Positions 6,686-27,548 of a DNA stretch of 28,222 nt are shown piece after piece. The translations under genes were made by a program, and so were the position numbers. The notes under the pieces were generated by a model. The model searched no databases. It worked only from the letters and a program-made list of their open reading frames with translations, and was not told the DNA's origin. Position 1 is the stretch's first letter, and the number at the start of each line of letters is the position of its first letter. The DNA comes from a virus, in IMG/VR virus record IMGVR_UViG_3300006928_000052, positions 1 to 28,222 of that record; one strand, 5' to 3'.

Positions 6686-7030
6686 TTATTGCACCTCTAT
6701 TACTAATTGTATCTTGACTTCATTGTTCACACTCTTATTAATCGGCCTGAAAACATGTCGAGTAATCGGTGTAAACCCATTCGTACCACGTAGTTGCACG
6801 AAGACTTCCTTCAAAGTTTCATCGTAAGAATCGGCTGTTGAGAGCGTACCTTCGACCAAAAGTGTTGCGTTATCGAGTATTTTGACAGTTGGTGATATGG
6901 TGACAGCAGGACGTCCAGCAGCACCATCGGACGAGGTTGCGGGAGTGCCGTCAAATCCTATCACCATCTCGTTGATGTTATTCGCTACTGTTTCTATCAT
7001 TAGTCTCTTCAAATGGTCGTTTGCTGGCAT
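6686..7030 (-). CDS. Small virion protein between hub-like and fibre genes, 114 aa
   Basis: I do not recognise a named family. The protein has a helical-looking start (NDHLKRLMIETVANNINEMV), then a beta-rich body with ITPTxxxILDNATLLVEGTL-like alternation and an end rich in beta strands (HVFRPINKSVNNEVKIQLVI). No signal peptide or membrane segment is visible. Its start overlaps the stop of the hub-like gene by one base (TAATG) and a GAGGGGA ribosome site precedes it, so translation is coupled. Small beta proteins at this place, between the hub and the first fibre, often belong to the baseplate or fibre-attachment layer. That role is inferred from position only. Confidence 0.8.
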   Translation of the reverse strand: MPANDHLKRLMIETVANNINEMVIGFDGTPATSSDGAAGRPAVTISPTVKILDNATLLVEGTLSTADSYDETLKEVFVQLRGTNGFTPITRHVFRPINKSVNNEVKIQLVIEVQ

Positions 7031-8439
7031 TATAATTCCCCTCTCATAGTTATCGACGTTCCCTTGTTTAACCCTAGCACTTTGTTATTCCCACCTATCA
7101 TACCTCTATTTCCGTTTCGGCCAATAAGAAAACCATTCTGTGCTACTTTAGTGAGTGTTATCATGGGTACTATGGTTATGTCGAATGTGTTAAAGAAGGA
7201 AAAGTTCTCCTCCGTAATCTGCTGATTTATGTCCGGGTTTCTAACAGATGACTCAGTAATACCTGTTTCAAATATACCTTGTAGTATACCATCTATACCA
7301 CTCTTCACGCTAGTGAATACGAAGTCCGATACCGAACGCGCCATCTTGTGGGTGGCTTCTATAATGACATGCTTCTGACCGTCGTACATTACTATGTCTC
7401 CCGGCATTAAATCGAATGATGAGGGATGTCCTGCTGTTTCTATTCTACCTTCCATAGCACTATTGGCCTTGAGCATCTTTCTCGCAACCCTCCTTGCTTG
7501 TTGCATGGATGTGATAGATGCATCAAATACGGGGGTTATACCCTCTATTACATCATTGTCGAATCTACCTTGTTGCCTAGACCTATCATCCATAGTTACT
7601 AGAAGTTCCTCGTTAAGGGCTATGTTCCTGCCTCTAACTGATACTCTGTTCTGACTGTCATGCACTGGAATGGTATCCTTGTTGCCCAGTCTTATATTAG
7701 CATCAAGTATTCTTAGGGAGGAGAAGTAAGACATAGGTACGTGTAAGAGCGAACCGAACCTATTGAAGACCGGAATAGCATTGTCGTGCTTGGATAGGTA
7801 TCTTAGCGATGTTATTAGATTGACCCCGTTGAAGTTGGCTGCTAGGAACACATTGCTGTGTTGCCTTCTCTGAGAACTGTTGACCGTGTTCAGCGGATTG
7901 CCTATGGATACGGATGTGATAGAGCCTGTTATGCTATCTCCTAGTCTCATGGCTAAGTCAGTGGTTCTGAATCCCACATCTACTGTCTGCCCGAATCTCA
8001 CAGCATCGTCATTGAATCCTATGCTCCTCAAACTCTTCCCCTTCATGTTTCTTAATTCCACACGCAAGCCTTCATCAGTTAAAGTGGTGGTTTTACCTAG
8101 TAGTCTCTTACCATCATTGACTGCACCGTAGAGAAGAGGAGTGCTCGCATTCTTGCCCTTGCTTCCGTATATCGCGTTTTTCAAAGTATGACCATCTGTC
8201 TCCCTATGTGTCAAATATGCAGTGGACTCGCTTTCTACAAGGGAATATGTTTTCTCAGTGGCTAAGTCGTAGTTCTCAGCATTGTTGTTTTCTATCGTAA
8301 CCTTGCTACCCTCGCTACTACTCTCTACTTTCGCATAGTGCAATGCGTTATCCACAAATACAGGCGCTCTTAGTTTAGTGGCCATGGTTACTAAAGAGGT
8401 ATCAAAACTACCTTGAGCAGGTGTTATTCTTACCATCAT
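7030..8439 (-). CDS. Baseplate hub-like protein (late control D / gp27-like), 469 aa
   Basis: Residues 305-380 have the signature layout of phage tail hub proteins: a helix (SMQQARRVARKMLKANSAM), then a small barrel with GHPSSFDLMPGDIVMYDGQK, and HVIIEATHKMA, where the late-control-D/gp27 fold usually has PGDxVxxxGxxYxVxxVxH. Earlier parts are beta-rich and less clear. The C-terminal end is Gly/Asn-rich (GRNGNRGMIGGNNKVLGLN). Two adjacent ATG codons are available (8439 and 8436). GGAG lies seven bases before the first, which fits that start. The gene overlaps the stop of the giant gene by four bases (ATGA). Likely role: a ring at the distal end of the tail tube onto which the tip and fibres assemble. 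The hub assignment rests on motif layout, not on a search. Confidence 0.75.
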   Translation of the reverse strand: MMVRITPAQGSFDTSLVTMATKLRAPVFVDNALHYAKVESSSEGSKVTIENNNAENYDLATEKTYSLVESESTAYLTHRETDGHTLKNAIYGSKGKNASTPLLYGAVNDGKRLLGKTTTLTDEGLRVELRNMKGKSLRSIGFNDDAVRFGQTVDVGFRTTDLAMRLGDSITGSITSVSIGNPLNTVNSSQRRQHSNVFLAANFNGVNLITSLRYLSKHDNAIPVFNRFGSLLHVPMSYFSSLRILDANIRLGNKDTIPVHDSQNRVSVRGRNIALNEELLVTMDDRSRQQGRFDNDVIEGITPVFDASITSMQQARRVARKMLKANSAMEGRIETAGHPSSFDLMPGDIVMYDGQKHVIIEATHKMARSVSDFVFTSVKSGIDGILQGIFETGITESSVRNPDINQQITEENFSFFNTFDITIVPMITLTKVAQNGFLIGRNGNRGMIGGNNKVLGLNKGTSITMRGEL

Positions 8440-11400
8440 GCACCATCTCCACTGTGGTCTGATGTATTGAAGTTTATATCTCCTTTGTGTCCTTTACCAT
8501 GCAATGCTTGACTAAATCTAGGTTTAACCCTATAATCCATTCTCATAGATACAGTATCCGTATCAATTGCTTGTCTTCTTCTAGGTGCGTCTGAGCGATG
8601 ATGTTGAAGAGTGTTGTTTGTGATAGTCGCTGTCGTTATGGTAGATAGGAGGCTGTTGCTGTCATAGCCCGCTGCTTCCGTACCGGGTAATTTAGGGCCT
8701 TTCCCACCGGGTACTTGCAATGCAGCATCCCAATTCGAGAAGATAGGTATGTATGGGCCATTGCTATCAGGTATGCTTCGTCCAGTAGGTAAGTTATCTA
8801 TATCCGCTCTACCGCCCGGCGTTTCATATGTGAATACCCCATACTTGCCTCCTGATGTGGCTCTTAGGTAGTTCTGAGCGTATTGTGGTGAAGAAGAGTG
8901 CAATGAATCATGTGGTCTGAATACCTCCACATGCTTAGCATCTAACAGACGTATCGGTCTGAGTAGAAAACGTACGAGCGAGTCGCTCTCATTGTTCCTG
9001 ACAGTGTTGCTCGTGAAAGTGGAATCTTGGTAGGGGTTGCTTGTGTTGGTGCTCCCAGTGAGATTGGATAATCCCCATCCTGTGTCATCAAAATATCCAG
9101 CGTAATTGAATGACTCAAGCATGTATGAACCGCCGTACGGCCTGAATATGTTAGTATGTGAGAACTTGTGAGCACTGTTGAGGGATGACCCTCCACTCTG
9201 CCTTGCGAAGGATATGTTGGTGTAGTTTGCATCAGATAGCGTTGATGCGCCTGATAGCAGATTAGATGCACCGAGTAAGGTGACTCTCTGACCCACGTTC
9301 CTGTCAGTGTGTAGGCTATGTGCCTCTGTGTTAATTACCACGTGACTCTGCTCTATGTCTTCGCTTACCTCCGCATCAAGACCTATTCTAGGGCTACTAC
9401 GAGATATCGCTGACTTGTGTGGCGTATCACCCACTATCTTCTCGACTCTATCGCTCACTACCGCATCGAGTTTGATGAGTCCTTTGTCGTCTATGCCTAG
9501 CCTAGCGCTGATGCCTCGTTTAACCTCGTCATTCTGAAGCAAATCGTCTCTAGGTCTTAGTAAACCATCACCGAAAAGCGGCTCTGCCGTATTATGGCTG
9601 AGTACGATACCTGTCTTGCTTATTGGGTCTGATAGACCAGTTAAGACGTCTTCATTGAGCATAGTGGGGTATCGAATACCTCTACCGCTACCCATGTCTC
9701 CTACTCTTAGAGAGTGTGTTGGTGCGAATACATCCACTAGGTCATTATCCGTACTGTTTAGATTCTCGTCGTTGTCAGTGCCTCCGAAGCGTGGTATGTT
9801 GTATCCAGTGGTGATACTGACATTACCATTGGAGAAGTTCACAAGACCCTTCAGATTGAAGATTGGTTTAGCATCGTTCCATATCCTACGATATGGGCTT
9901 CTGTTATTTCTTCTGTCGTATTCGTACGCATCACCTGCGTCCCATGCTGGTCTGATGCCGAATCCACGCACTGGAGCACGCCTCACGTCCTCTCCACGCT
10001 CATTACCCCACCAATCCACCAAGTAGTGCTGAGAAGCCACAGAGAGGCTTGTAATGCCTAATCCATTGACATCTCCCCACCAGTCTCTTCGAACTGCACT
10101 TGGATTGCGTATGGTACGCACTGGTGTGCCGAATGGCCTTGTCATCCTTCTACCGTCACTATACCTCACCTGAGTCTCCTGCTTGTCATGTCCTAGCATA
10201 CCAGCGAAGTTGGTCTGCCTCTCCATCACACCTACGTATGTGGTTGGGAATGTGCTGCTGCTAGTACCATTGCCACCCCACTCCCAGTCCGTGGACTCCA
10301 TCTGCACGAGTGGGCCGCTGTCCGCGTCCGTGGTGTTCTTGCCCTCTACATTGGCCGTATTCTCGTACATCATACGGGCTGGTGATAGACCGTACCGTGG
10401 TCTGTTAGTGGCTTGCAGTACACCGAAACGGTGACCGTACGCTCTTCTCTCGGTAGCATCTGCGGTCGTTGTAGTGATTCCAGCAGAGATGGCATAACTA
10501 CCATCATCGTCGCTATCTACGAACTTGTGCTGCGTGGCAGATGAAAAGTTAGCCCTCTGTGATGTGTCGTGTGCGTTCCATGTAGTACCTACCATGGAGT
10601 AGTACCCCAAATCGCTGGCCTGTGCACCACCACGGCTACCGCATGGCCAGTATCCTGCTAGCATGATATTAGTGCCCCCAGCGTCGTGTGTGCTGTCACC
10701 AGCCACCGCCGTACCATCTTTCAGAGAGATACTAGGCGTCTTGATGAGGAAGTCGAATGGCCCATTGCTTATTGCATATGAGAAATCATGGTAGTGTATG
10801 GTCTCGAAATGCTCAGGTAGGCTATTGTACGCCTTCTTATCTATCGCATTGCCTCCAAATGTCGTTCTACTATCCGAGAAGTATGTATTAGGTCTACCTA
10901 GATTATGGTGCCACATGCATAGGAATGCATCGGGTACGTATCCTGAGTTGGTATCCCTATTACCTAATATGACATCATCTAATATATTTGCGAATATACT
11001 TCTTCTCTTATCTGTAATTATAGTACCAGTAGGTATATTGTTGAATGCTGAGGATAGTCTTAGAACTGCACCATCGAATAGGTTTGTCCAAAACACATCA
11101 CTACCTCCAGCAACTTGTATATAGTCGCCCTTGTTTATGTCAAAATTGCTTCCACTGCGGTTTACAAGTGCTTTAGAATACTTATTGCCGTTTTTAGCAG
11201 TATATTCGATTACCTCGGAATAGTAGTTTTTCAAAGGAAATAGATTAGAGTTGTCAATTTGTATTCTACCACTGCTGGAATCAAAACTAATCACGGTAGT
11301 TTTAGGTACTAAACTGATACTTTGCATATTACCTGAGTATATATCTATATATGCAGAAGTATATCCATTAATTGTTAACTGTTTTCCTATACTTCCAAAT

Positions 11401-14400
11401 GTATTTCTACATATATGATAATAATCGTGAGGTGTATATTGAGACATTTTCAAAAATGCACCTGAATTACCTGATGGGTCTTCCTTATGCAATATACTCC
11501 ACCAAGGTATATTCAAGGTATATCCGGGTGTAGCAGGACTGAACATCGCCGAATATGGGAATCCTCTACGTGTAAATGACGGGCTTTCTGTTAATTGTAC
11601 CCCTAATGGGTTATACGACATCAATAAAGGTATATTTGTGAATTGACTGCCGGGGTCGGGGTTTATGTCCAGCATCACCTCATTAACGAATACCTCGCAT
11701 CCTCTTACATCAGCACCTACTTCCTTTGCTAATACGAGCGTTAAACCCCCTTTGGTAGCATCTTCCTTTATTGCTACGACTGTGTTTATCTGCTGACTAG
11801 TTAATTTACCGTGATTGTGATAACCCACTAATTGGTTATCGAATACATTTGGCTGTATTACTATCTGATATGCACCTACCTCAACCGGGTCAGGGAAGTG
11901 TCTGCCTAATGTGTAATTACCCGCTGCCTCAAGAACCACACTATGCCCTCCTAGTTTGTTAATATCACCTGCGTTAGTACCACTGGAAGCCAGTATACCG
12001 TATCCATCGTATCTAACTCCAGTTTCAAACATCAGTGAGAATGCACCTCCGTGTATGTCGCTTGGGCCGCTTGGTGCAGCGTTTATCGCACTGAAGTTTA
12101 TCTCAGGCTCTAACGGGTTGATGTTGTCTGCTAGATTAGTTATGTTAGTTTTCTTGTTAGTCTGAGTCTTCAGGTTATCGAAGAATGCGGTATCTTTGAA
12201 TCCAGTTCTAATCCCGTAGTCAAGTAGGTGTCTCTTGTATAGCGACTGATATGCTGGATGTGCCCAGTGTCCGGGTAACATAGGCATAGTAGGTGTGACG
12301 AAGTGATGCCCCATTCTTGGGAACGGCATTGGTGTTAGTTTGGGTCTGCTGTAAGCATTGTACGCTACTGAGTCTCCGTTGAAGTAAAGGGTCTCAGCCA
12401 TGTCGGGGGAATTACCACTGACCTCCGCGTGGTCGCGCATTCTCCTTGCAGCAAAGAACCGTGTACTACCAGCAGGTACGTAATATGATGGTACTACCTT
12501 CACAGTAGCATCAGGCTCGTACTCACCGCTAGTTGTATTCAAGGTGAAATACTTTGATAAGAAGTCTGCTAGTTCTATGTCTCCTGTTACGCCTTTGAAC
12601 CAGTTCTGCTCCACACCTGATGTGCCCGTGCTTGTATAAGACATCACAACTCCCTCCTCGGTCACAGTGTCGTACATCCTGATGAATCGTCTGTTATCAC
12701 TAACTTCCTTTGTACCGAAGCCTGAGTAGTTTAGTATCTCATTACCAGCAGAGACGCTGATATTGTTGTCAAAAACAGGGTTTTGGTACAATCCAACAGT
12801 CATCTTCAAGTTACTGTTGGTAGCGTCCCATGACGTTACTTTACCGTTGTAGTTTCTCACACCACTGGCATGCGTGTACACAGTCGGGTATCGGTGGGTG
12901 TGGCTATGCCCCATCTTTGTCACATGGAAGAACAGTGTCCTATCATGCAGTTCATACGATGTGTCTAGCGGATTGTTGTTATTCCATGCTCCGATTTGAG
13001 AGTCAAAGGTTACTGGGTCTATCCTCTCCCAGTTGTGGTCTTCGTATGTAGGCGACATTCTAGGGCCAGCAACTGAGTTGTTGAAAAGATGACTGGTGTA
13101 TGATGACCCTAAGTCGGGGTGGTGCATACCTCCACTTCCGATAGTCTCGTTCTGATATGCTTGTAGTGGGTCGAAACCTGAACGCACCACTATGTTACCC
13201 GGTATCGAATCAGGATTAGGTAGCATTACCTTGAGATTAGGGGTATTTCCACTGTTTGCTAATGCTGGTGCTCTACCCTTGATTGCTCTATTCTCAGTCC
13301 CTCTGAAACCACGTATGACAGTTCCCAGTGGACTACCGCCCTCTATGTTGTGCTTCTCACCAGCATCATCTACAACGGTGATTGCTCTGAACTGAACTTC
13401 CTCATTGGGTATCATTAACACGTTGTTAACCTTGTAGGGATGCTTTCTCATTAAATCGGGATGAGATAGTTCCTGTGCTTGCAGCACTGGCAGCATGGCA
13501 CCGTTCGTGGTCTCGAATGTGAATCTCACATTACCTAGTAGTTTCTCTCCTGTGGTGTATGCTGTACCGCTTGCTATTCTAGTAGTCCAAGGCACTGCAC
13601 CCAATCCTCTTGCATTGGATGTAGGAAGCGACAAGTTGCCTCCATCCATTCTCTTCCATACTATGTTCTCCACTGAGAAGTTCTTCACTGCGGAGTCCTC
13701 GTACATTTGGAATCCATTGACATCACCTAACCAGTACGGTGTTGGGTATGATGCGCTGTGTACGACACTATGTTTGTCTGCTGATGTATTCCTCTCAGCG
13801 TCATTGCTCTCTAGCAGTACAGAGCCAACGGAATGGTCTAGGTCGAATAGCAGGTCTCCTATCTTGTTGAGACCCGGCACTGCGTTCTTGAGTTTTCTGT
13901 CCTTTTCGCTACCATCGCTACCTGTGACTGCTGAGTGAAAGTACGAGCCTGTGCCCGGTGTATGAGTGAATGTGGTATCTGCCCAGTTAGTGTTCGTGAG
14001 CGTACCGCTAGGTAGAGCAGTGGTGTCTAGTATGAGCGCCTCTACGTTAGGGCCAGCATTCGCTGGTGCGATGAACCTGTCCTCACCATGTATTCTCTCA
14101 TCCCACCTAGTCGTACCTGCGTAGTGTATTGGATTACTGGATTGGCCATGTATGTGTAGCCAATCTCCTGTACCCTCGATGCCGTCATTATCTCTCTTGC
14201 ATATCAGAGTGGACTCAGCATTGTACGATACTACGATGAAAGCATGAGAGTACAGCCCCTGTGGTCGAGTGAGTTCCTCCGGGAGCGTACCGGCGTAGTT
14301 CGATGGGTCTGCCCATTGGTTGGCGTTGCCTGTCTCGTCCGTGTCCTTGAAGTTGTATGTATAGGAAGACCAACCGCCTTTACTGGGGGCTGTATGGTTA

Positions 14401-17400
14401 TACTGTGAGTAAAAGTTGGCTTTCTTCATGTGAGTGCCTAGGTTGTTCCCTATGCCGTCTATGCTAGGCGTGCTCTCAGGACTGCCAAACATCGATGTTA
14501 CTACCGGTACGTGACTGTGCAGTCCCACTACCGTACCAGCAGTACCGTATGGTGAGAATGCTAACATTGGGTGGTAAGCGCCTAATCCCGCTGCATATCC
14601 AGTGGTGTTCGTAGTGGATGAGTTCTTGGTTACGCTAGTCGTAATCTTCAGGCTATTGAGATATGAGTATCTTTCACCGTGCCATCCAACAGAGCCTATT
14701 GGACGTGTCCTATCTATCGCATCTGCTATGCCTGAGAAGTGCACTTGACACATATGGTCTCTAGTAGTAGCATTCTCATTGTTGAACCTCATAGTACCGG
14801 CTTTAGTCCATACGTAGATATCGTAAGTGTTGTTTATTGTTGGGAATGAGTTGGCTGTGAATGTGGCTGAGTTCTCTGCTTTGCTGTACCCCTTGAGTCT
14901 GTTTGGAGCCATGTAGAACTTAACCTTCCAGTTGCTGCTGTCTTTGAGTACCTCCCTAGAGTGATAAGGTACCCATGCATAGTCAGACCCTCCATCATCC
15001 TTGTAGAGCCTGAGCCAACCTGATGCTGGAGTCTGCTCCAATTGAGCCTGTGTGAATGCTGGTGAGCCTGTTCCCGACATTATGTGATACCCAGCGGTAT
15101 CCGATACGTCATATGTCGCTACTGCACCGAGATTGACCCAAGAATACCTATCTTGCTGCATTGAGTTACCCATGGATGGCATGTGTGAACCACCCATGGC
15201 TTTGAGTGCCCCAGCACCGGGAAATGCGTTAATGGCTGCTCCTACGACGGTGGCGAGTTCTTCTCCGTTCTGACATCGAGTTCCGTCAACTACTATGTAC
15301 TCCATCTTAGCATCTGTAACAGATACGTTATCTGTTTCGTTACCTCCCTGACCTCCGCTAGCCACACCGCTGATGTAATCAAGTATTCTACCAGTCATGA
15401 CGCCTGATGCTCTGAATGCAGTGGGATGTACTTGTTTGGCAGCCTCCCAATGAGGCCCTCCACCACCACTCTGATTTACTGCTCCCTTGATTCTTGTAGC
15501 CTTGTTTGGATGTGGTGGGTTGAATGTGATTTGGTTGTCCATCCAGTGACCTCCGGGATGGAAGCCCCCATCCATGTGGAACACGGTATCTGCTGCCATT
15601 GCTATGCCGAAGCCTATGGTAGGAGTGTGAGAGCGGGGGAACATCAGAGATAGGTTGGATGCGTTCGTTGGGGTATCATCATTGAATTGCTGGCCGTAGT
15701 GCCTACCATGTGCTGGTCTCTGTGCTAGTATTACCTTGTTGGCGTATCCAGCGGGACTCTCCCAGTTGACCATTGCCTTCCAGTGAAAACCAGCCCTAGC
15801 AGCGTAGTTCGAGTTGCTAGGAGGTGTGTGATACAACGCAGTATCCATTGGTGGTGGCGGTGATGCCCAGTGATTACCCACTGTGACTACTCTACCCGGA
15901 TATGGCTCTAATGTGTTACTACCCACGGTACTTCCGAACAAGGTACTACCAGTAGTGGATACTTCCTTGGTGAATGGGAAAGCCTGTCCCGGCCCGAATA
16001 TCAGGTAGGTGGTTTTGTTGTCTATGTCCACACCATCAACGTGGTCTTCGTACCGAGCAGTCTGATGCGCAAATCTCAGCACCAATGGTACTGGTTTGGC
16101 TTTAATGAGGTCGTGAGTCAGGTCGTTGTTACCAGCCGGATTGCTATACTTCGTCACACCCTTGTCAAGGTCAGGGGAGAGCACGTTGTCCTTGTTGAAC
16201 GCTGGTGGTGTTATGCTGCCGCGATGCTGGTTGCATAGTGCTGTACCGGGGAAGAAGGCAAACATAGCATTCGCATCAAGTATGGCATGGCTGGATGATA
16301 TCTCGCTAGCATTCTGTAATCCTGCCACACCCATCGGCCCATTGGCGTATGGGTGAGTGTAGAACGAGGAGTAATCGTTTTGCGTACCATCATTTACATC
16401 TAGTACTACACCGCTAAAGCCTCCACCGAAGAACAGTGGTACGCTGTGGTCGTCTCCGCTCTTACCTCCTCTGAAGTACACTATCGGTTCTGACATGACG
16501 CTACCGAGAGACCTGAGACCTGCGAACTCCCTAGCCCTCTTCGAGTCTGCGAATAGGGAAAATATCACACTATCTAATGGGATAGGTTTCAAAACACCTG
16601 TGGTAGAACCTGTGAAAGTCAGTGTCTGATTGGTCTTGCTACCACCAGTGGTGGAATGACTGAGTTCAAACGTGGTGTCGTTGGTTATGCTGTTTATGAT
16701 AGCATTATTGGGTATGTCAGTACCACTGACCTTCATGCCTACGAATAATGAGGATGTGCTATCCATCGTTATCGTGGGGTCGTTGTTGTAATCGCAAGTG
16801 GCATCTGTGAAAATATCGGTCGTTTCACTCCATGTTAGCATTGAAGAGACAAATGGTATTTCAGGCCAATTGTCGGATTGTGATTTGTCATCCCATATTA
16901 GAAGACTAGCATCGGAAGAAACCGTAGATGTCACATATCTACTAACCGTGGCAAATACATCGTTTCTGAAGAATATCTTCTTTTTCTCACCTACTGATAT
17001 GTGAGCGCTATTTACATGAGCAGTACCGCTTTGTGCTGGTATGAATACTCCATCTTGTGATTTATTGCTAGTAAGAAAACGTCTATCAGTCCATTGATAT
17101 TCTCTTGCTGTTCCCGGCCCACTACCTACTCCAGTGGCTGTGAATATCGTTCCTGCGTGGTTATCAGTAGCACCTATGGCAGTAAAGTCTGTATACGGTG
17201 TACCTTGCGAAACAGCATATGACTTTTGATTTATGATTTGATATTGTGTACCTATACTGAAAGAACCTGCATCTACAGAAGGGAATATACTATATTTACC
17301 CATAGGATTGTCTATCTTAGGTAGGATATGGTCTCCATAGGAACGAGTGAATCTCATGCCTTTCAAGTTCTCCATCCAAGTACGTGTATTAACTGGGATG

Positions 17401-20400: not shown

Positions 20401-23400
20401 TACGGATTCAGCCAAGTTGCGTTGAGAATTGCATCTTTGTCAATGTAATCTCCTGTTGAGATACGTACATCATAGGTGCCAGCACTCGGTGTTTGGTTAG
20501 TTCTACCTGTAACTGTTACTACCTGTTCTCCGCTCGTGTTGACGGTTGCTACATCGCTCACAGTGCCTATTGGGTAGAACGTGCCACCGTGAGCACCACC
20601 GGAAGTGTAGAAGTAAATGTAATCGCCCTTCTTGAGATTACCACCGTGCAGGTCATTCAAACTCTTACCTGCTGCCGTTGTAATTGTAATAGCAGAGCCT
20701 GTTACTGTTGTTGTCGTACCTATTTTATATGTAGAACCAAATAGTTCGTCATACAATGCGCTACTATATGCTGAAGAGTTACCTTGATTGTGTATCGGGT
20801 TTATGAGTCCAGCAGTTAGAACGTCTTGTAAGGCTTTTCTACTTTTTCTAGCAAGATATATTTCCTTTTTATCCAAAGAATTAGGATAGGAAGCCGAGTC
20901 ATAATACGTCAGAACTATGCTAGTCTTCGGTATATTCGTATCAGTTTCTATGTTCTTAAGATGGCCGTGATACTGGTACTTGTATATCGTACCGTTATCA
21001 TCGTGCTCTACTACATAAAGCAACTGTCCTTCGTCTGTTGGTGCTGCTGCAAGAGTATCGTATCCCAAGTCGGGGAACTTCTTGAAGTCCTCTTCATTCA
21101 AAGTGACTATAATTGCTTTTTCTATTGAGTTTATTCCTATGCTCTCTATCGTCTGAGCCTGTACTATACCTCTTGCCCTACCTGTTTCTACTCGTGCTGC
21201 ATGTGGATTGCTCTCAGGCCCTGCCTTGAACTCGACTGCGCTCACGTACTGACGGAGGCCGTAATCGACGTTACCTCCCTGCGTCTTAACGCTAGCAGCA
21301 TCGTGATAGAACTCGTTTCTGCTCTCAAAATCACTGGAAGGAGTAAGGTCATCAGATGCCATGGGTGTAGCATTCTCGACTACTGGGCCACCAACGAAGA
21401 GGGATATTCCTTCTTTCAGGCTAGATACGAAGTTCTCAGATATGTTATAATCAACATTGACCAGTTGGATATAACCACTGGTATGCGGGTCGTTGTTGTA
21501 CCATGCCCACTCTCCTTCTGCTGTGAATACCCTTCTATATCTATGTTGACTAACTCCTGCTATAAGCGCGCTTCCTGAGTGAGTAGTTGCGCTTGGAAAT
21601 ATCTTGGGGTCGCTGACCGTTAAACGAAAATTGGTATCATCCCAAGACTCCAATATCGCTGACTTAACGTGCTTGTTCTGAGAGATAGCGTATGAGTATG
21701 CGGATTGTGCTTCTCTGTCAGCAGGGTGAACATCCTTCATTCTACGACCTACTGGACTTGGATTGAATGTGTGTGCCGTGTGAGTGGCATCGATATGAAT
21801 CTTGAAGGCATTGTCCGGGCCGACGTTGTTATGGAAGAATTGCTTAGAGAATACTGGTATTTCTGCTAATGCTCTAGTGCTAGCATACTGAGTACCTAGT
21901 TGGTAGTCATGAGAGACGTCGTTTAGAGACTGATGCATTCTGTCATTTATGGTAGTACCATTCTCCAAGTTGGTATTGTTCCCGAAGTCAGGCTCGCTGT
22001 ATATCGTGAAGTTACCATATACCGTCACATTAGTGCCAGTAGTGCTACCCTTCATGTATCCAGCAGCATTCAGTAAGGAATTGACTGAAATGAACTCTCT
22101 ACCTCTACTGCCAACAAAATCTCCGCTGCCTAATGCTGCTGAGGCGAATGTGAATGTACTACCCGTCTTGCTAGTGTATTTGGCACTAGTTCCATCTGCT
22201 AGGTATATTCTCCCTACTTTGGGGAATCCGTATGTACCCCAACTGCTAAGAGAGGTGGACTTGTTATTTAGAGGCTCTATGTACAGAACAGCACTGCCAG
22301 CGTTGAAATCGATGTCCATCCTTGTCGCTGTAATTGCATATGCTCTTCTAGTGGAATACGACTCGTGCGCTAGTCTGCTTATCTGACTCATTGGCGCTGT
22401 GTCCTTTGCCCCTTGACCCGGCCCACCTAGAGTAACTGTTACTACTGGGGCATTCGGCTCTATTTCCTTGACTATATGGGAATCGGGGCTTCCACTACCA
22501 GTAAGACCAACAGAACGTGTGATTGCGGATTCTGCTAAACCTATACATTCTATCGTAGTGAGACTAGCATTCTCCCCCTCGCTTTCTTTGACTGCTCTGA
22601 CTCTCGCTCTACTGAGAAGGTACATCGGCGTCATTAGATTGACTGGTGCTGTGTTTTCCAAATTGGATTTGAGAGAGGATAACTGATTCGTCCTCCTTCT
22701 ATCCGAAGGTTGTATGATGATTTTAATGTTGGATATAGAACTTAAGACTTCAAAATTGTCTATTATGTCAAATACCTCATGGACGTGCGATGACACTTGA
22801 GGCAATCCCGTATCGAACTGACCTGCTGATGGGGAAGATGCTACTATTTCAGGCTCAAGACGTTCGTAATCTACTTTATCAGCAAGTTCAGTAGCAGCGA
22901 TTATCTTGTCAATGGTCAATCTATTGAATACGGATTCGTGAGTTCCTGTCGTGCTGGATGACTCTGATATGACTTTAGGAGTAGTGTTAAATGAAGTAGA
23001 TATTGCTCTAGGCGTGTAATTCGCTGGTACTAGGCTATCATCTAATGAAACATCTGCTTCGTATCCTTCGCTGTTATCTCCTATCATAGAATGAGGCGTT
23101 GCGAGTATTTGGTCTCCAGTGAAAGCCTCTATAACTCCTCCAGCAGAATACAGAGTTTTGCCTGACGCTAATGAATTTACAATAGCGTCATATACATATG
23201 ACCCTCCTCCTGTTGCGGCGTCCGATGCTGGGACAGTCTTCTCAACCATCAACAAAGGCTGGTATCTTCTTGCTGTACCACTACCGCTACCAGTTCCAGT
23301 GGCTGTGAATATAGTACCTACATTATTGTCTGCTGCACCTATACCAGTGAAGGAGGTATTACCGGCGCTAACAATGACATATTGCTTGCCTGATACGAAA

Positions 23401-25382
23401 GAGCCAGCACTGGTTATTGTATGCATGCTCTCGCCGGTCAGGTCTATCGCATTGTAGTGAATCTCGACGTATGGTGCGAACTTCACATTGGTGGTCTTCA
23501 GTTGAGGTACATGCAACAATGCCACTCTGCTTTTGGTAGAGGGTCGCAAATGATGTGCTCTTATGGTAGATTCATATTTACCGCCTAGTGATGGAGTAGG
23601 GCCTTTCAGAAGGAATGGAGTATAATCAAACTTGTCTCCACCTATTGCTATCAGTTTACGCTTGCCAGCAGGTGGATTGCTGGTATTCTGAAGGGAGTTA
23701 ATCGCAGATGTCACAGTTGATGTGTTGACTACTTTATTCAGTTCTAACTGGTCGAAGTCTCGATAGATGTCTATCTTACTGTTGACTGCTATCTGCTGGT
23801 CTACACCATCTTGCATTTCATCATAAACCAAATCAATAAGTTCTGCTCTACCATTTCCTCTCTGATGCACAATCTCATCGGATGCTTTGGGTAATATGGT
23901 TAGGAACGAATGGCCATCTACGTGATTGAGAGCATGTCTACCGCTATGTCCTATCTTCCATCCGTCATTGTCCTCAAGAGGCCAAGTCACTGCAAAGGGG
24001 TTCTTGGTGTCGACGTCTGTGGTTGACATTCTAGAAGAGAATACGAAACCGTGATTGTCAAAACCGCTTTCGTCTATGACCATCTGCCCTGTTCTATCTA
24101 TGATTTGAGTATTGTAATGAGGCGGTTGGTATACCTTCCCTGACCTGTTATCTATGAGTAGGTCTGCACCTATGACAACGAAGTAATCGTCTGAATCGGT
24201 AGTTCTAGTCTTGTTTATGACACCGACTAGTCCACTGTTGGTATCTACGGTATGGTCTAGGTGTATGCTGGATACGGTAAGTATACCAGTAGCGACATCG
24301 ATTGAATGTAATCTTACTCTCTCAGGTGGAGTGGTATTGGGCTTCTTGGTCTTCCTGTCTATACTTCCGGGATTTATTAATAGGTTGTAAGGCAAATGAG
24401 CCACAGTTCTATTGACGTTTGTACCAGTCGATGCATCGTATATTTCGTAAGAGCCTGAACTGTAAGGAGATACAGCGAAGTCAATCGTACCTGTGGTAAC
24501 TGTGTTCCCAGTAAGTTTCTTTGCTAACTCCTTAGCATCTGCCGTAGTGAGAGTCATGGTACTGAGTGTATTGGTATCATAACCACCAGTCAGAGTAGTG
24601 AAGGTATACTCCTTTTCTACGGGTGCTATTGGTTCTTCGAATCTGTATAGCAGGATGGTGTCGTCACCTGCTAGTGGACAGTTGTTGTTCGTGAGGGTAT
24701 TCTTGAAACCAGCAGCAATGTGTACAGCCTCCATCACTCCACGGAACTCACCGCCTTTGCCTCCAATGTAGGTGTTGGAATTAGATTGAACTAACCCCAG
24801 CGTAGAGTTAAGAGTCTTTTTGGCTACCAAGGCGGCGTTGATATAGAGTTCTATGGATTTAGACCGAACTGTGGCAACTACGTGAAGCAATTCCCTGTGA
24901 TTCCTATTTAGGTCTGTCGCAAGTCCGTAGTTGGTAGTATCGAATCGATTATAGGAATCGTGAATCCCACCAAAGGTAGAGCGGGGGAAGACAGTACCAT
25001 CGTACCTATTACCACCGGTTACATCTACTGCGCTGGATATCTCATGAGTCTGCCTGTTTCCGTTGTCATTCAATGTGACTCTGAATGTTGCTGGGCCGGG
25101 AGTATCTATACTGCCTACTGATAGTTTGAACTGCCCAGCCTTTTCTATTATCGTACCACCACAATCGGGCATTATCCAAGCCTCAAAGGTTAAGAAGGGA
25201 TAATTAGCACTCATTACGCTTGCAGATGGGTCTGAGTTCTTGTCACTGAGCATTTGACTAACATCACTACCACCCTCGACGTTCTTCTTGCCGACAGCCT
25301 TGAACGCACCTTCGGGAATGAGAATGCTGTCGCTCACCCCATCGAAGAAGAATGCGTGGTTAGTGTTGCCTATTGCCGTCAT
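8436..25382 (-). CDS. Giant tail-tip/adhesin-like structural protein, 5,648 aa
   Basis: One uninterrupted frame of 16,947 nt. The N-terminus (residues about 8-250) is a LamG-like lectin fold: HAFFFDGVSDSILIPEG, FLTFEAWIMP, IELYINAALVAKK and NTYIGGKGGEFRGVMEAV. Two copies of a small beta module with GTIFTATGxGSGxGTA lie at about 657-708 and 2704-2762. A module with SLFVGMKVSGTDIPNNAI and DTTFELS lies at about 2863-2926. ELATVVGAAINAFPGAGAL and EVIAAAMAAAINAGNEI recall short helices seen in phage structural proteins. A Trp/Arg-rich segment with two DWWG motifs lies near 5100-5125. HxH motifs recur throughout. No signal peptide, clear transmembrane helix or catalytic motif was seen, and Cys is rare. 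Most of the length is unrecognised, rich in Gly, Asn, Ser, Thr, His, Tyr and Trp, which fits a large beta-rich extracellular fold. The ATG at 25382 is four bases after the preceding stop and has no obvious ribosome site, but the LamG fold begins just after it, so the start holds. Position between tail-tip and hub-like genes suggests a giant tip or fibre adhesin. Confidence 0.85.
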   Translation of the reverse strand: MTAIGNTNHAFFFDGVSDSILIPEGAFKAVGKKNVEGGSDVSQMLSDKNSDPSASVMSANYPFLTFEAWIMPDCGGTIIEKAGQFKLSVGSIDTPGPATFRVTLNDNGNRQTHEISSAVDVTGGNRYDGTVFPRSTFGGIHDSYNRFDTTNYGLATDLNRNHRELLHVVATVRSKSIELYINAALVAKKTLNSTLGLVQSNSNTYIGGKGGEFRGVMEAVHIAAGFKNTLTNNNCPLAGDDTILLYRFEEPIAPVEKEYTFTTLTGGYDTNTLSTMTLTTADAKELAKKLTGNTVTTGTIDFAVSPYSSGSYEIYDASTGTNVNRTVAHLPYNLLINPGSIDRKTKKPNTTPPERVRLHSIDVATGILTVSSIHLDHTVDTNSGLVGVINKTRTTDSDDYFVVIGADLLIDNRSGKVYQPPHYNTQIIDRTGQMVIDESGFDNHGFVFSSRMSTTDVDTKNPFAVTWPLEDNDGWKIGHSGRHALNHVDGHSFLTILPKASDEIVHQRGNGRAELIDLVYDEMQDGVDQQIAVNSKIDIYRDFDQLELNKVVNTSTVTSAINSLQNTSNPPAGKRKLIAIGGDKFDYTPFLLKGPTPSLGGKYESTIRAHHLRPSTKSRVALLHVPQLKTTNVKFAPYVEIHYNAIDLTGESMHTITSAGSFVSGKQYVIVSAGNTSFTGIGAADNNVGTIFTATGTGSGSGTARRYQPLLMVEKTVPASDAATGGGSYVYDAIVNSLASGKTLYSAGGVIEAFTGDQILATPHSMIGDNSEGYEADVSLDDSLVPANYTPRAISTSFNTTPKVISESSSTTGTHESVFNRLTIDKIIAATELADKVDYERLEPEIVASSPSAGQFDTGLPQVSSHVHEVFDIIDNFEVLSSISNIKIIIQPSDRRRTNQLSSLKSNLENTAPVNLMTPMYLLSRARVRAVKESEGENASLTTIECIGLAESAITRSVGLTGSGSPDSHIVKEIEPNAPVVTVTLGGPGQGAKDTAPMSQISRLAHESYSTRRAYAITATRMDIDFNAGSAVLYIEPLNNKSTSLSSWGTYGFPKVGRIYLADGTSAKYTSKTGSTFTFASAALGSGDFVGSRGREFISVNSLLNAAGYMKGSTTGTNVTVYGNFTIYSEPDFGNNTNLENGTTINDRMHQSLNDVSHDYQLGTQYASTRALAEIPVFSKQFFHNNVGPDNAFKIHIDATHTAHTFNPSPVGRRMKDVHPADREAQSAYSYAISQNKHVKSAILESWDDTNFRLTVSDPKIFPSATTHSGSALIAGVSQHRYRRVFTAEGEWAWYNNDPHTSGYIQLVNVDYNISENFVSSLKEGISLFVGGPVVENATPMASDDLTPSSDFESRNEFYHDAASVKTQGGNVDYGLRQYVSAVEFKAGPESNPHAARVETGRARGIVQAQTIESIGINSIEKAIIVTLNEEDFKKFPDLGYDTLAAAPTDEGQLLYVVEHDDNGTIYKYQYHGHLKNIETDTNIPKTSIVLTYYDSASYPNSLDKKEIYLARKSRKALQDVLTAGLINPIHNQGNSSAYSSALYDELFGSTYKIGTTTTVTGSAITITTAAGKSLNDLHGGNLKKGDYIYFYTSGGAHGGTFYPIGTVSDVATVNTSGEQVVTVTGRTNQTPSAGTYDVRISTGDYIDKDAILNATWLNPYAPGGLRNGDTVWANMSYNNPHAVEGLFAKSRGVYDESQVWQEFNGGASQVNNSPRDSIALENFLIGNTCLETARNYVQHINRTIEENYLALGLTISQAPTIAYIDPYLSNEDHARVLLYDVKNDREFVAFQDIHMQVQSSPQATQLGWPKEVVEEDEDTSNPLHSINAKYNGAGPSPWTTQIDVANGFPSQNPYIRSTQQSKFIESAYAHDLANRHTSDLIDSTTIASLSPALPTDGRVIAGSRLWGKAHGHHVHTGFSYGGIVDGYKSGNSITPRTKDEAVLYRKADKLHSLSRIQNTEADFFIGKLIDWRAKAGATTHTMRDPSTFFDTPDGTRVIPAFLCLRGIRSDTLDLSSHEFGNVNKRPQWTNMDFIRRLTVDMGEVAQRDGVTNVQNAAEEVVRLINQHAALNARTAGGSAHDPSPFWHVDDNNKGTHMGYVRAHIGREVEDLNGDRGFTIVIHSTVPGASGRNFCAWLDNSKGQTTYQPQFLIGHGGRWRNFWALPEESEGENMHPAPMPLNKHGRPFAPVTTLQQYISTQSTGEDVNSVADFDDTNLLRATSETLGGSSRNTASLESLDVKGSTSSLVKGLRTGTRAMSRINFGGLVAAGIPGWSPIAGTYGMGKQNETAQSHRYGTPNLSAYSSHIPSSQASSDSIGTEPIYGFRFKNNIGAESGIRLIYRKMGDSIGNDNTILPNTIEDEVCIFFDDRSVSDGGFTIGAHMHGSGDATGRSTITVGTAHGWFGNEWRSVPSPSVAMVMNVSYSSSNSALTITDVDGYNSDTDKGLSYLGFPKENGVFQASVHTGDVGKVYSYSKRVDNVFYGVTPSISSGNDYLISPSINWTCILTDEVIAAAMAAAINAGNEINSDKGLTFDCTNMYATDGRTFAEWGIKPESIKIRAFSTNSNVRPLSMDYSATLQRDLGIQASHLEFGELENAYEPTGTEDWNFGINSYSVADADIDAGESIDCGYIPYNLLEIRTKARGPHANTATPILVDSQNIPVNTRTWMENLKGMRFTRSYGDHILPKIDNPMGKYSIFPSVDAGSFSIGTQYQIINQKSYAVSQGTPYTDFTAIGATDNHAGTIFTATGVGSGPGTAREYQWTDRRFLTSNKSQDGVFIPAQSGTAHVNSAHISVGEKKKIFFRNDVFATVSRYVTSTVSSDASLLIWDDKSQSDNWPEIPFVSSMLTWSETTDIFTDATCDYNNDPTITMDSTSSLFVGMKVSGTDIPNNAIINSITNDTTFELSHSTTGGSKTNQTLTFTGSTTGVLKPIPLDSVIFSLFADSKRAREFAGLRSLGSVMSEPIVYFRGGKSGDDHSVPLFFGGGFSGVVLDVNDGTQNDYSSFYTHPYANGPMGVAGLQNASEISSSHAILDANAMFAFFPGTALCNQHRGSITPPAFNKDNVLSPDLDKGVTKYSNPAGNNDLTHDLIKAKPVPLVLRFAHQTARYEDHVDGVDIDNKTTYLIFGPGQAFPFTKEVSTTGSTLFGSTVGSNTLEPYPGRVVTVGNHWASPPPPMDTALYHTPPSNSNYAARAGFHWKAMVNWESPAGYANKVILAQRPAHGRHYGQQFNDDTPTNASNLSLMFPRSHTPTIGFGIAMAADTVFHMDGGFHPGGHWMDNQITFNPPHPNKATRIKGAVNQSGGGGPHWEAAKQVHPTAFRASGVMTGRILDYISGVASGGQGGNETDNVSVTDAKMEYIVVDGTRCQNGEELATVVGAAINAFPGAGALKAMGGSHMPSMGNSMQQDRYSWVNLGAVATYDVSDTAGYHIMSGTGSPAFTQAQLEQTPASGWLRLYKDDGGSDYAWVPYHSREVLKDSSNWKVKFYMAPNRLKGYSKAENSATFTANSFPTINNTYDIYVWTKAGTMRFNNENATTRDHMCQVHFSGIADAIDRTRPIGSVGWHGERYSYLNSLKITTSVTKNSSTTNTTGYAAGLGAYHPMLAFSPYGTAGTVVGLHSHVPVVTSMFGSPESTPSIDGIGNNLGTHMKKANFYSQYNHTAPSKGGWSSYTYNFKDTDETGNANQWADPSNYAGTLPEELTRPQGLYSHAFIVVSYNAESTLICKRDNDGIEGTGDWLHIHGQSSNPIHYAGTTRWDERIHGEDRFIAPANAGPNVEALILDTTALPSGTLTNTNWADTTFTHTPGTGSYFHSAVTGSDGSEKDRKLKNAVPGLNKIGDLLFDLDHSVGSVLLESNDAERNTSADKHSVVHSASYPTPYWLGDVNGFQMYEDSAVKNFSVENIVWKRMDGGNLSLPTSNARGLGAVPWTTRIASGTAYTTGEKLLGNVRFTFETTNGAMLPVLQAQELSHPDLMRKHPYKVNNVLMIPNEEVQFRAITVVDDAGEKHNIEGGSPLGTVIRGFRGTENRAIKGRAPALANSGNTPNLKVMLPNPDSIPGNIVVRSGFDPLQAYQNETIGSGGMHHPDLGSSYTSHLFNNSVAGPRMSPTYEDHNWERIDPVTFDSQIGAWNNNNPLDTSYELHDRTLFFHVTKMGHSHTHRYPTVYTHASGVRNYNGKVTSWDATNSNLKMTVGLYQNPVFDNNISVSAGNEILNYSGFGTKEVSDNRRFIRMYDTVTEEGVVMSYTSTGTSGVEQNWFKGVTGDIELADFLSKYFTLNTTSGEYEPDATVKVVPSYYVPAGSTRFFAARRMRDHAEVSGNSPDMAETLYFNGDSVAYNAYSRPKLTPMPFPRMGHHFVTPTMPMLPGHWAHPAYQSLYKRHLLDYGIRTGFKDTAFFDNLKTQTNKKTNITNLADNINPLEPEINFSAINAAPSGPSDIHGGAFSLMFETGVRYDGYGILASSGTNAGDINKLGGHSVVLEAAGNYTLGRHFPDPVEVGAYQIVIQPNVFDNQLVGYHNHGKLTSQQINTVVAIKEDATKGGLTLVLAKEVGADVRGCEVFVNEVMLDINPDPGSQFTNIPLLMSYNPLGVQLTESPSFTRRGFPYSAMFSPATPGYTLNIPWWSILHKEDPSGNSGAFLKMSQYTPHDYYHICRNTFGSIGKQLTINGYTSAYIDIYSGNMQSISLVPKTTVISFDSSSGRIQIDNSNLFPLKNYYSEVIEYTAKNGNKYSKALVNRSGSNFDINKGDYIQVAGGSDVFWTNLFDGAVLRLSSAFNNIPTGTIITDKRRSIFANILDDVILGNRDTNSGYVPDAFLCMWHHNLGRPNTYFSDSRTTFGGNAIDKKAYNSLPEHFETIHYHDFSYAISNGPFDFLIKTPSISLKDGTAVAGDSTHDAGGTNIMLAGYWPCGSRGGAQASDLGYYSMVGTTWNAHDTSQRANFSSATQHKFVDSDDDGSYAISAGITTTTADATERRAYGHRFGVLQATNRPRYGLSPARMMYENTANVEGKNTTDADSGPLVQMESTDWEWGGNGTSSSTFPTTYVGVMERQTNFAGMLGHDKQETQVRYSDGRRMTRPFGTPVRTIRNPSAVRRDWWGDVNGLGITSLSVASQHYLVDWWGNERGEDVRRAPVRGFGIRPAWDAGDAYEYDRRNNRSPYRRIWNDAKPIFNLKGLVNFSNGNVSITTGYNIPRFGGTDNDENLNSTDNDLVDVFAPTHSLRVGDMGSGRGIRYPTMLNEDVLTGLSDPISKTGIVLSHNTAEPLFGDGLLRPRDDLLQNDEVKRGISARLGIDDKGLIKLDAVVSDRVEKIVGDTPHKSAISRSSPRIGLDAEVSEDIEQSHVVINTEAHSLHTDRNVGQRVTLLGASNLLSGASTLSDANYTNISFARQSGGSSLNSAHKFSHTNIFRPYGGSYMLESFNYAGYFDDTGWGLSNLTGSTNTSNPYQDSTFTSNTVRNNESDSLVRFLLRPIRLLDAKHVEVFRPHDSLHSSSPQYAQNYLRATSGGKYGVFTYETPGGRADIDNLPTGRSIPDSNGPYIPIFSNWDAALQVPGGKGPKLPGTEAAGYDSNSLLSTITTATITNNTLQHHRSDAPRRRQAIDTDTVSMRMDYRVKPRFSQALHGKGHKGDINFNTSDHSGDGA
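11161..11460. other. AT-rich patch inside the giant gene
   Basis: By hand count this 300-base stretch is about 30 % G+C (89 of 300), while for example 10321-10380 in the same gene is about 55 %. It codes for residues about 4642-4741, a Tyr/Ile/Lys/Asn-rich segment. The frame stays open throughout, so it is part of the gene and not an insertion that breaks it. The likely reading is a domain gained by recombination from a source with different composition. Confidence 0.7.
16607..16795 (-). other. VGMxVSGxxIP-type beta module of the giant protein
   Basis: Residues about 2863-2926 read TITMDSTSSLFVGMKVSGTD, then IPNNAIINSITNDTTFELS and TNQTLTFTG. This matches a module I recognise from phage and uncultured marine virus structural proteins (GMxVSGxGIPxxTxIxSI...FxLS). 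It lies about 100 residues after the second GTIFTATG module. Confidence 0.65.
17097..17273 (-). repeat. Second GTIFTATG-type beta module of the giant protein
   Basis: Residues about 2704-2762 contain AGSFSIGTQYQIINQKSY, FTAIGATDNHAGTIFTATG and SGPGTAREYQ. They line up with the first copy except for an insertion of about five to seven residues in the middle. The surrounding DNA is AT-rich compared with most of the gene, so the module may have been swapped in separately. Confidence 0.75.
23262..23414 (-). repeat. First GTIFTATG-type beta module of the giant protein
   Basis: Residues about 657-708 contain AGSFVSGKQYVIVSAG, FTGIGAADNNVGTIFTATG and SGSGTARRYQ. The same module recurs about 2,000 residues later (DNA 17097-17273). 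I know this pattern (YxIxxxGxTxFTxIGAxxNxxGTxFTATGxGSGTGTA) as a common module of marine phage structural proteins. It is probably a small beta fold that stacks in fibres. Confidence 0.75.
24633..25361 (-). other. LamG / concanavalin A-like domain coding segment of the giant protein
   Basis: Residues about 8-250 of the giant protein show the usual landmarks of a LamG_3-type sandwich. An aromatic FDG(V)xD opening comes first, then a TFEAWI strand, an LLHVVATVRSKSIELYINA strand pair (where the family has HVAxTxDGxxxxxYxNG), an IGG turn, an EAVHIA strand and a closing LLYRFEE. Such domains bind sugars or act as docking folds in phage tail proteins. No ligand residues can be assigned by eye. Confidence 0.75.
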
Positions 25383-26646: not shown

Positions 26647-27548
26647 CAGAGCACGCTCCTATTACTTCCCAATGACCCTTTTACTTGGTCTTCAATCATA
26701 TTGCCTATCTCTCTAGCGTATGCTCTCTTGTCGCTCTTGTCAGTCATACCAGCAAGACTCAATGTCATATTCACTGAGGTGTTCATTCCTCCGTTTATCG
26801 CCGCCCCAATTGTTGTAGCGGTATTTTGCCTTGCGTCTTGTATAGCAGATGCAGTACCCTTGACTTTGGATTTGGCCTTTCCTAATACTCCACCTATCTT
26901 GTTTATTATTTTCTTGATTGGTGCGAATGCTTTCTTTATTATACCGAATGCTGTTGTAAATATCTTTGAGATGAAGTTGCCGACTGGTGCGAATGCTTTC
27001 TTTATGAAGCCGACTACCTTACTAACTGTTGATTTTGCTGTCTTGAAGATTCCCTTTATCGCTTTCTCGCCTATGTTGATGCCAAACTTCAGTATCTTTC
27101 CGGGTATCCCCATTAGAGTCTTTATGAGAGGTATGAGATTGCTTTTGATGGTACTCTCGATTGTCTTGAAAGCCCCTTTGAAATCACCTGTGAATATCTG
27201 TATGATTGCTTTTAGAGTATCTTTGAAGATTTTGAATATCGGGATGACTATATCCGTGAATGCCGTTTTCGCTATGCCGAAGGCACCGAGGAATATATTT
27301 CCGATGAACTTGCCTACTCGTATAGCAGCATCTACTAAAGGTTCTAACATAGGCCATATATTCTCTTTGGCCCACTCTGTAAACTTACCAAAAACCTCTA
27401 TCGCTTTGGTAGCAGCGGACGCCATTGCACCAGCCAATGCGCTTCCTGCCGTGGCTGCTATACCGCCTAGACTACTCATGAGGCCGCCTACTGCGCCTAG
27501 GGATGACGTGAGTGTCGCCATGCTGGTGAGTAATGCGCCTATTGCCAT
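26646..27548 (-). CDS. Short tape measure protein, 300 aa
   Basis: The composition is that of a tape measure: Ala/Gly/Ser-rich start, long Ile/Phe/Lys-rich amphipathic helices (residues 50-225) with no Cys, then a C-terminal tail (NTSVNMTLSLAGMTDKSDKR, YAREIGNMIEDQV). The tail matches the usual tape measure ending of the form xVxxTxxVxGxTDxxDKRxxAxEI. Two imperfect 22-residue repeats start at 181 and 203 (FIKKAFAPVGNFISKIF and IIKKAFAPIKKIINKIG). The protein acts inside the tail tube as length ruler. At the common scale of about 1.5 angstrom per residue, 300 residues predict a tail near 45 nm, short for a long-tailed virus. The ATG at 27548 overlaps the preceding stop by one base and is preceded by GGAGGA at six bases. 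Its place right after the chaperone pair supports the call. Confidence 0.85.
   Translation of the reverse strand: MAIGALLTSMATLTSSLGAVGGLMSSLGGIAATAGSALAGAMASAATKAIEVFGKFTEWAKENIWPMLEPLVDAAIRVGKFIGNIFLGAFGIAKTAFTDIVIPIFKIFKDTLKAIIQIFTGDFKGAFKTIESTIKSNLIPLIKTLMGIPGKILKFGINIGEKAIKGIFKTAKSTVSKVVGFIKKAFAPVGNFISKIFTTAFGIIKKAFAPIKKIINKIGGVLGKAKSKVKGTASAIQDARQNTATTIGAAINGGMNTSVNMTLSLAGMTDKSDKRAYAREIGNMIEDQVKGSLGSNRSVL
26916..27005 (-). repeat. Two 24-base near-identical copies in the tape measure gene
   Basis: The 24-base stretches at 26916-26939 and 26982-27005 differ at one position and are 66 bases apart, giving an in-frame 22-residue repeat (xIKKAFAP...). Twenty-two residues is two 11-residue helical periods, a usual tape measure spacing. 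Tail length evolves by gain or loss of such units. Confidence 0.8.

What the first reader, a model, noticed from the sequence alone, without database searches (positions are those of the whole stretch)
8436..25382. Single 5,648-residue protein filling 60 % of the window
One open frame of 16,947 nt lies between tail-tip and hub-like genes. Only the LamG-like start, two GTIFTATG modules and one VGMxVSG module are recognisable. The rest (well over 4,500 residues) is unrecognised by eye. A protein this large in a virion is exceptional. It could be a giant tip fibre, a shell around the tip, or several fused adhesins. This is my main candidate for an undescribed system.
Basis: partly seen in the sequence, partly recalled or inferred. 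Interest (0 to 1): 0.85.

Follow-up and report, generated by a model that had tools for sequence, protein, structure and literature searches.

The report
Giant tail protein of archaeal viruses
The window encodes a real 5,648-residue (614 kDa) protein, shared by hundreds of marine virus contigs that look like magroviruses (viruses of Poseidoniales archaea); it is probably a core part of the tail tip, built as a strictly conserved scaffold into which small protein modules are inserted at about twenty alternative places, and I found no description of it.

Summary
The frame is real: 8436-25382 (-), 5,648 codons, 614 kDa. It is not an assembly chimera. Independent IMG/VR contigs carry the same gene as one frame of 5,215-6,362 aa, and profile scans find 264 related contigs. 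It always sits between a ~400-aa gene and a ~470-aa gene. The viruses look like magroviruses: the capsid protein matches only archaeal viruses (Druskaviridae 31-34%), with thermosome-like chaperonin, family B polymerase, HMG-lyase and ~100-kb contigs. All 14 marine contigs that reach 15 kb past a capsid gene carry it; three complete Druskaviridae genomes lack it. It evolves as a scaffold: 60% identical between distant members (hub-like gene 53%, tape measure 30%), dN/dS mostly 0.02-0.1. A ~66-aa module occurs at 21 different sites across relatives; two 98%-identical giants carry a 94%-identical copy at different sites, each with an empty site in the other. Outside a lectin-like (LamG) N-terminus, small beta repeats and these modules, no known fold was found; the C-terminal model failed. 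Best reading: tail-tip/baseplate scaffold with exchangeable surface modules. Virion location and function are inferred, not shown.

The parts
8436..25382 (-). giant tail protein, 5,648 aa, 614 kDa
   Evidence: homologues
24633..25382 (-). N-terminal LamG / concanavalin-like domain (aa ~1-250)
   Evidence: Pfam Laminin_G_3 E 3.6e-7, 35 of 36 relatives; AF2 model pLDDT mostly 80-93 in the core strands and Foldseek matches to ConA-like folds
23265..23420 (-). inserted GTIFTATG module 1 (aa 655-706)
   Evidence: absent at this place in many relatives; HMM E 6e-25
17094..17270 (-). inserted GTIFTATG module 2 (aa 2705-2763)
   Evidence: 56-61% identical to module 1; absent or different in most relatives
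16581..16862 (-). insert of ~94 aa (aa 2841-2934) holding the 66-aa VGMxVSG module (aa 2858-2923)
   Evidence: lacking in over 120 of the aligned relatives; same module at 20 other scaffold sites in relatives
21375..21701 (-). hidden small beta repeat, copy A (aa 1228-1336)
   Evidence: profile match to aa 4681-4782, 79% probability
11037..11342 (-). hidden small beta repeat, copy B (aa 4681-4782)
   Evidence: the only part of the C-terminal AF2 model with pLDDT around 80-89
8439..8519 (-). strictly conserved C-terminus RFSQALHGKGHKGD...HSGDGA (aa 5622-5648)
   Evidence: same ending in full-length relatives
25387..26646 (-). conserved gene upstream of the giant, 419 aa, no known match; includes an Ala/Gly-rich stretch
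   Evidence: always directly upstream in relatives; alignment A5
26646..27548 (-). short tape-measure-like protein, 300 aa
   Evidence: PHROG tape measure families, E 2e-8
7030..8439 (-). 469-aa gene, weakly hub-like; start codon overlaps the giant's stop
   Evidence: Phage-tail_3 E 0.01, below cut-off; PHROG 1887 tail protein E 0.05; always directly downstream of the giant
6686..7030 (-). 114-aa conserved gene
   Evidence: 81-94% identical in relatives
4294..6684 (-). 796-aa fibre-like gene, diverging (36-76%)
1609..4284 (-). 891-aa fibre-like gene, fast diverging (27-53%)
   Evidence: PHROG 6002 virion structural protein E 8.5e-20
3..1580 (-). tail fibre gene, incomplete at the window edge
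   Evidence: PHROG tail fibre E 1e-19
27826..28188 (-). conserved 120-aa gene in the position of a tail assembly chaperone (position only)
   Evidence: 70-86% identical in relatives; HVTV-1 has annotated chaperones at this place
27548..27829 (-). 93-aa gene overlapping the previous one

Best explanation
It is a core tail-tip (baseplate-like) structural protein of a magrovirus-like archaeal tailed virus. Shown: one conserved 5.2-6.4-kaa reading frame, fixed in a clade and in one gene position (after the tape-measure-like gene and a ~400-aa gene, before a hub-like gene and the fibre genes), under strong purifying selection, with a LamG lectin-type N-terminus and many sites where small modules are gained or lost in frame. 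Inferred: a few copies of this 614-kDa chain build most of the mass of the tail tip around a small hub; the invariant part is the assembly scaffold that links tail tube, hub and the fast-evolving fibres; the LamG domain and the exchangeable modules lie on the outside and tune binding to glycans or particles, without touching the scaffold.
For: Gene position in every relative examined; tape-measure and tail-fibre matches of neighbours. Present in 14 of 14 marine contigs that reach 15 kb past the capsid gene, absent in three complete Druskaviridae genomes. Identity between two distant members: terminase 83, capsid 81, portal 80, giant 60, hub-like gene 53, ~400-aa gene 45, tape measure 30, fibre genes 50 and below. 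dN/dS 0.02-0.1 almost throughout, 0.21-0.25 at the module region. About 40 insertion-tolerant points of at least 30 aa and module relocation.
Against: No proteomics or microscopy, so virion location is by gene position only. The hub call for the 469-aa gene rests on sub-threshold matches. Giant and neighbours match no Druskaviridae tail protein. No baseplate fold was recognised: the N-terminal model matches only LamG folds, and the C-terminal model has pLDDT 35.
Confidence: 0.6

Rival explanations
1. A giant receptor-binding fibre or side adhesin: the LamG end and the modules bind the host, the rest is shaft.
For: LamG N-terminus; beta-rich N-terminal model; next to fibre genes; modules shared with downstream fibre-like ORFs.
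Against: No tandem repeat architecture expected of a shaft. Conservation above that of the hub-like gene and the fibre genes, and strong purifying selection. The fast-evolving fibre genes downstream are better candidates for receptor binding.
Confidence: 0.2
2. A polyprotein: translated as one chain, then cut by the viral protease into several tail proteins.
For: Extreme length and several distinct regions; these viruses encode an S78-type prohead protease. One relative (L080) has the frame broken near aa 3980.
Against: No cleavage motif was found or tested; the break in L080 is a small out-of-frame internal deletion in a single contig; in 36 of 41 contigs the frame is whole.
Confidence: 0.12
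3. Not a virion part but a large secreted or injected protein that happens to lie in the tail block.
For: No direct evidence for virion location; no known fold in most of it.
Against: Strict position between tail genes in all relatives, and presence in every marine contig of the clade that reaches the place.
Confidence: 0.06
4. Assembly chimera or read-through artefact.
For: None found.
Against: Same frame in many independent assemblies.
Confidence: 0.01

Closest known systems
UniProt A0A1B1IU10 (first piece of a split long viral protein in BFVD)
   Same: 56% identity over ~1,210 columns with the N-terminal model, so a homologue is in public protein databases
   Different: no name in the tables at hand; no role assigned that I could find
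Magrovirales (Aoguangviridae, Apasviridae and unclassified magroviruses; PMC10768690, PMC12999244)
   Same: ~100-kb genomes, family B polymerase, chaperonin, HMG-lyase, ERCC4, capsid related to haloviruses
   Different: the profiles and papers I could read list capsid, portal, terminase, 'minor tail', 'baseplate' or 'tail fibre' proteins but no giant protein; reference genomes ON649702, OR863078 and PP497040 are not held here
Druskaviridae tail module (HVTV-1, HCTV-1, HCTV-5)
   Same: capsid protein 31-34% identical; order chaperones, tape measure, tail proteins, baseplate; a LamG protein in the tail block (HCTV-5 gene 136 by annotation; HVTV-1 L7TI36)
   Different: no protein longer than 1,045 aa in the tail block shown, no sequence match to the giant
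Phage gp27/GPD-type baseplate hubs (for the neighbouring 469-aa protein)
   Same: sub-threshold C-terminal match to phage tail families; sequence pattern resembles hubs (own knowledge)
   Different: not significant; PDB profile search found nothing credible

Membership tests
Magrovirales (virus lineage) | HK97-type capsid protein related to haloarchaeal tailed viruses | tested here: met
   capsid protein of relative G009 hits only archaeal viruses, Druskaviridae 31-34% over 99%; the window itself holds no capsid gene
Magrovirales (virus lineage) | family B DNA polymerase, ERCC4 nuclease, chaperonin and other replication genes, 90-110 kb genome | tested here: met
   PolB, ERCC4, SNF2, AAA, Cpn60_TCP1, HMGL in relatives G005 and G009; contigs of 91-115 kb
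Magrovirales (virus lineage) | host Poseidoniales, or placement in a reference phylogeny | not testable with these tools
   reference genomes not held; two genome-contig scans found no relative; no tree was built
LamG / concanavalin A-like lectins (N-terminus) | Pfam Laminin_G_3 above cut-off and jelly-roll fold | tested here: met
LamG / concanavalin A-like lectins (N-terminus) | binds sugar | not testable with these tools
   needs protein
Receptor-binding tail fibre | rapid divergence of the distal part compared with core virion genes | tested here: not met
   giant 60% identical where fibre genes are at 50% or less; dN/dS 0.02-0.1
Receptor-binding tail fibre | repetitive shaft (tandem repeats) | tested here: not met
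   no tandem repeats, few internal repeats
gp27/GPD-like hub (469-aa neighbour) | significant match to a hub family | tested here: inconclusive
   E 0.01-0.05 only
Polyprotein | cleavage into separate mature chains | not testable with these tools
   needs virion proteomics

The most novel reading that the evidence does not exclude
The short modules are mobile protein-coding cassettes: DNA of ~240 bp that inserts in frame into many places of one giant scaffold gene (and into other tail genes), by a dedicated or strongly selected mechanism, so that these viruses remodel their tail surface by moving domains rather than by point mutation.
Probability: 0.2. Interest if true: 0.85.

Novelty: new variant of a known kind. 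Interest (0 to 1): 0.66.

Why it matters
Magroviruses have been ranked as possibly the third most abundant planktonic viruses of the surface ocean (PMC10160649), with no isolate. If this reading holds, a single ~600-kDa protein is the largest and one of the defining parts of their virion, and the module map gives a test of how they vary their surface. It may also correct a published reading: Laminin_G_3 was listed as an auxiliary metabolic gene shared by four magrovirus groups (PMC10160649), whereas here it is the N-terminus of this protein (I did not examine that paper's own genomes).

Tried and rejected
Assembly chimera: rejected by independent homologues. Homology to described phages in INPHARED: only the GTIFTATG module gave weak hits. 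PDB profile searches with giant and neighbour alignments: nothing credible. Derivation from Druskaviridae tail proteins: profile comparisons gave at most 8% probability. AF2 of aa 4455-5648: pLDDT 35, not interpreted apart from one small domain. Foldseek matches of the N-terminus to PAPP-A, neurexin and clostridial neurotoxin binding domains only reflect the common ConA/LamG jelly-roll and say nothing about toxicity. Host through GTDB contigs: two scans found no relatives. Module matches in Pfam, PDB and INPHARED: none, or one weak cyanophage hit. Reference magrovirus papers by Philosof 2017 and Prabhu 2025 are not held.

Full report
OBSERVATION. The open frame 8436-25382 on the minus strand starts with ATG and has 5,648 codons; the product is 614 kDa with pI 5.8. 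There are no tandem DNA repeats and, apart from two copies of a ~50-aa GTIFTATG module, no repeat that BLAST can see. Pfam finds only Laminin_G_3 at the N-terminus (E 3.6e-7), PHROGs nothing. Its start follows the 419-aa gene by 4 nt and its stop overlaps the start of the 469-aa gene.

IT IS A CONSERVED GENE, NOT A CHIMERA. A scan with the downstream 469-aa protein found eight IMG/VR contigs, five of which carry the giant's first 1,350 residues in frames of 5,506-6,148 aa. Full-length proteins of 5,500, 5,517, 5,633, 6,143, 5,589, 5,516, 5,539 and 5,613 aa are 61-90% identical over their whole length. Profile scans found 149 contigs with the aa 4300-4700 region and 264 with the aa 1000-1400 region. 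Of 41 further contigs, 36 have single uninterrupted frames of 5,390-6,129 aa; MCP-based sampling added frames from 5,215 up to 6,362 aa. The one broken frame seen, in L080, comes from a small internal deletion in a single contig. In every locus where the flanks are present, the order is tape-measure-like gene, ~400-aa gene, giant, ~470-aa gene.

WHAT VIRUS. The window is a 28-kb virus record. Large related contigs (91-115 kb) encode family B polymerase, ERCC4, SNF2 helicase, a Cpn60/TCP1 chaperonin whose sequence reads as thermosome type, HMG-lyase-like protein, terminase, portal, S78 protease and an SU10-type capsid protein. That capsid protein matches only archaeal viruses in INPHARED: Druskaviridae at 31-34% over 99% of its length, and two methanogen-associated viruses. 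This agrees with the published profile of magroviruses, viruses associated with Poseidoniales: 90-110 kb, PolB, chaperonin, HMG-CoA lyase, haloviral kinship (PMC10768690, PMC12999244, PMC5332604, PMC10160649). PMC5332604 describes a clade with thermosome-type chaperonin. Host and formal placement were not tested with a tree.

PHYLETIC PATTERN. Capsid-gene scanning led by a halovirus sequence sampled 36 contigs. All 14 non-haloviral contigs that extend at least 15 kb past the capsid gene hold the giant; three complete Druskaviridae genomes do not. The HVTV-1, HCTV-1 and HCTV-5 tail blocks have ordinary proteins of up to 1,045 aa, and profile comparison found no relation of any of them to the giant. 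The sample is the 80 hits closest to the halovirus sequence, so other magrovirus groups could differ.

HOW IT EVOLVES. Between G009 and G005, identities are terminase 83, capsid 81, portal 80, giant 60, hub-like gene 53, the ~400-aa gene 45, tape measure 30, and 39-50 for the fibre-like genes. Nei-Gojobori dN/dS between the window and two close relatives is 0.02-0.1 in nearly all 300-codon blocks, but 0.21-0.25 at aa 2701-3000 where the modules sit; dS is near saturation, so these values are rough. An alignment of ten diverse members (first ~850 residues lacking) still has hundreds of invariant positions. This is the pattern of a core structural protein, not of a receptor-binding fibre.

ROAMING MODULES. 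Across 168 aligned sequences there are about 40 points where at least one relative carries 30 or more extra residues, up to 588. Clustering these inserts shows that the same module types recur at different points. A profile of the VGMxVSG module (66 aa) gives 63 hits in 40 giants at 21 separate scaffold sites; in most of these the module replaces 0-10 window residues, i.e. it is a clean insertion. GTIFTATG occurs at five sites, two further types at three to six. The VGM type also occurs in the ~760-825-aa tail gene upstream and in fibre-like ORFs downstream. Movement is recent: giants L111 and L112 are 98.2% identical over 4,585 residues, yet a module that is 94-95% identical in DNA lies at scaffold site ~4903 in L111 and ~1891 in L112, each virus and a third relative (L109) showing an empty site where the other is filled. 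The inserts are 246 and 243 bp, a multiple of three; no target duplication or inverted repeat was evident by eye. Mis-assembly of repeats in short-read data is not fully excluded.

STRUCTURE. AF2 on aa 1-1195 with 36 own-clade sequences gives pLDDT 69, pTM 0.68, mostly beta, with the LamG jelly-roll as the only part that matches solved structures. In the viral library the best match is an unnamed UniProt homologue at 56% identity, A0A1B1IU10. The C-terminal 1,194 residues failed (pLDDT 35) although they are among the best conserved, apart from a small domain at about aa 4685-4780. That domain is related by profile to aa 1228-1336, and another weak pair is aa 1031-1078 with 2430-2484. Failure may reflect a shallow alignment or an obligate multimer; I draw no conclusion.

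MECHANISM. Position after the tape measure and before hub-like and fibre genes, fixation in the clade and strong constraint point to a tail-tip or baseplate scaffold. Three to six copies would weigh 1.8-3.7 MDa, the scale of a phage baseplate (own knowledge). The LamG end and the exchangeable modules are the natural candidates for surface-exposed binding parts, while the fast-evolving fibre genes downstream probably carry main host specificity. Steps shown: gene, conservation, position, insert mobility. Steps inferred: virion location, copy number, tip placement, binding roles.

NOVELTY. The protein has database homologues, but in the papers available here no giant protein is described; key papers were not readable. 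The nearest published statement is the listing of Laminin_G_3 as an auxiliary metabolic gene in four magrovirus groups (PMC10160649), which this work suggests may be the giant's N-terminus. I rate it a new variant of a known kind: a tail protein, but of unusual size, clade-wide, and with domain relocation inside one scaffold.

Noticed in passing
L055 (contig IMGVR_UViG_3300030102_005560), giant after window aa ~5160: One relative carries a single 588-aa insertion made of beta-rich repeats, making its giant 6,143 aa.
   Followed up: partly
L108, L110, L115 downstream ORFs of 875-878 aa; upstream 759-825-aa tail gene in L018, L019, L023: The VGMxVSG module also sits in other tail genes, so modules are shared between genes of the tail block.
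   Followed up: partly
L080:7254-7273: The giant frame is broken by a small internal deletion in this one contig; assembly error or a real broken copy cannot be told apart.
   Followed up: partly
contig IMGVR_UViG_3300004457_000028 (L138 and L204): N- and C-terminal parts of the giant lie at opposite ends of this 103,294-bp contig (3,545 + 2,176 aa), as expected of a circularly permuted or circular genome map.
   Followed up: no
L050:10882-16521 and L029:12369-17561: Magrovirus-like contigs carry a second very long gene (1,730-1,879 aa) between portal and protease, only 31% identical between two members; HVTV-1 has a large gene annotated 'zeta toxin' in the region before its protease.
   Followed up: no
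window 27548-28188: A conserved 120-aa gene overlaps a 93-aa gene just before the tape-measure-like gene, the usual place of the frameshifted tail assembly chaperones; no frameshift site was examined.
   Followed up: no
window 25387-26646, around aa 260-320: The 419-aa neighbour has a long Ala/Gly-rich hydrophobic stretch that most more distant relatives lack.
   Followed up: no
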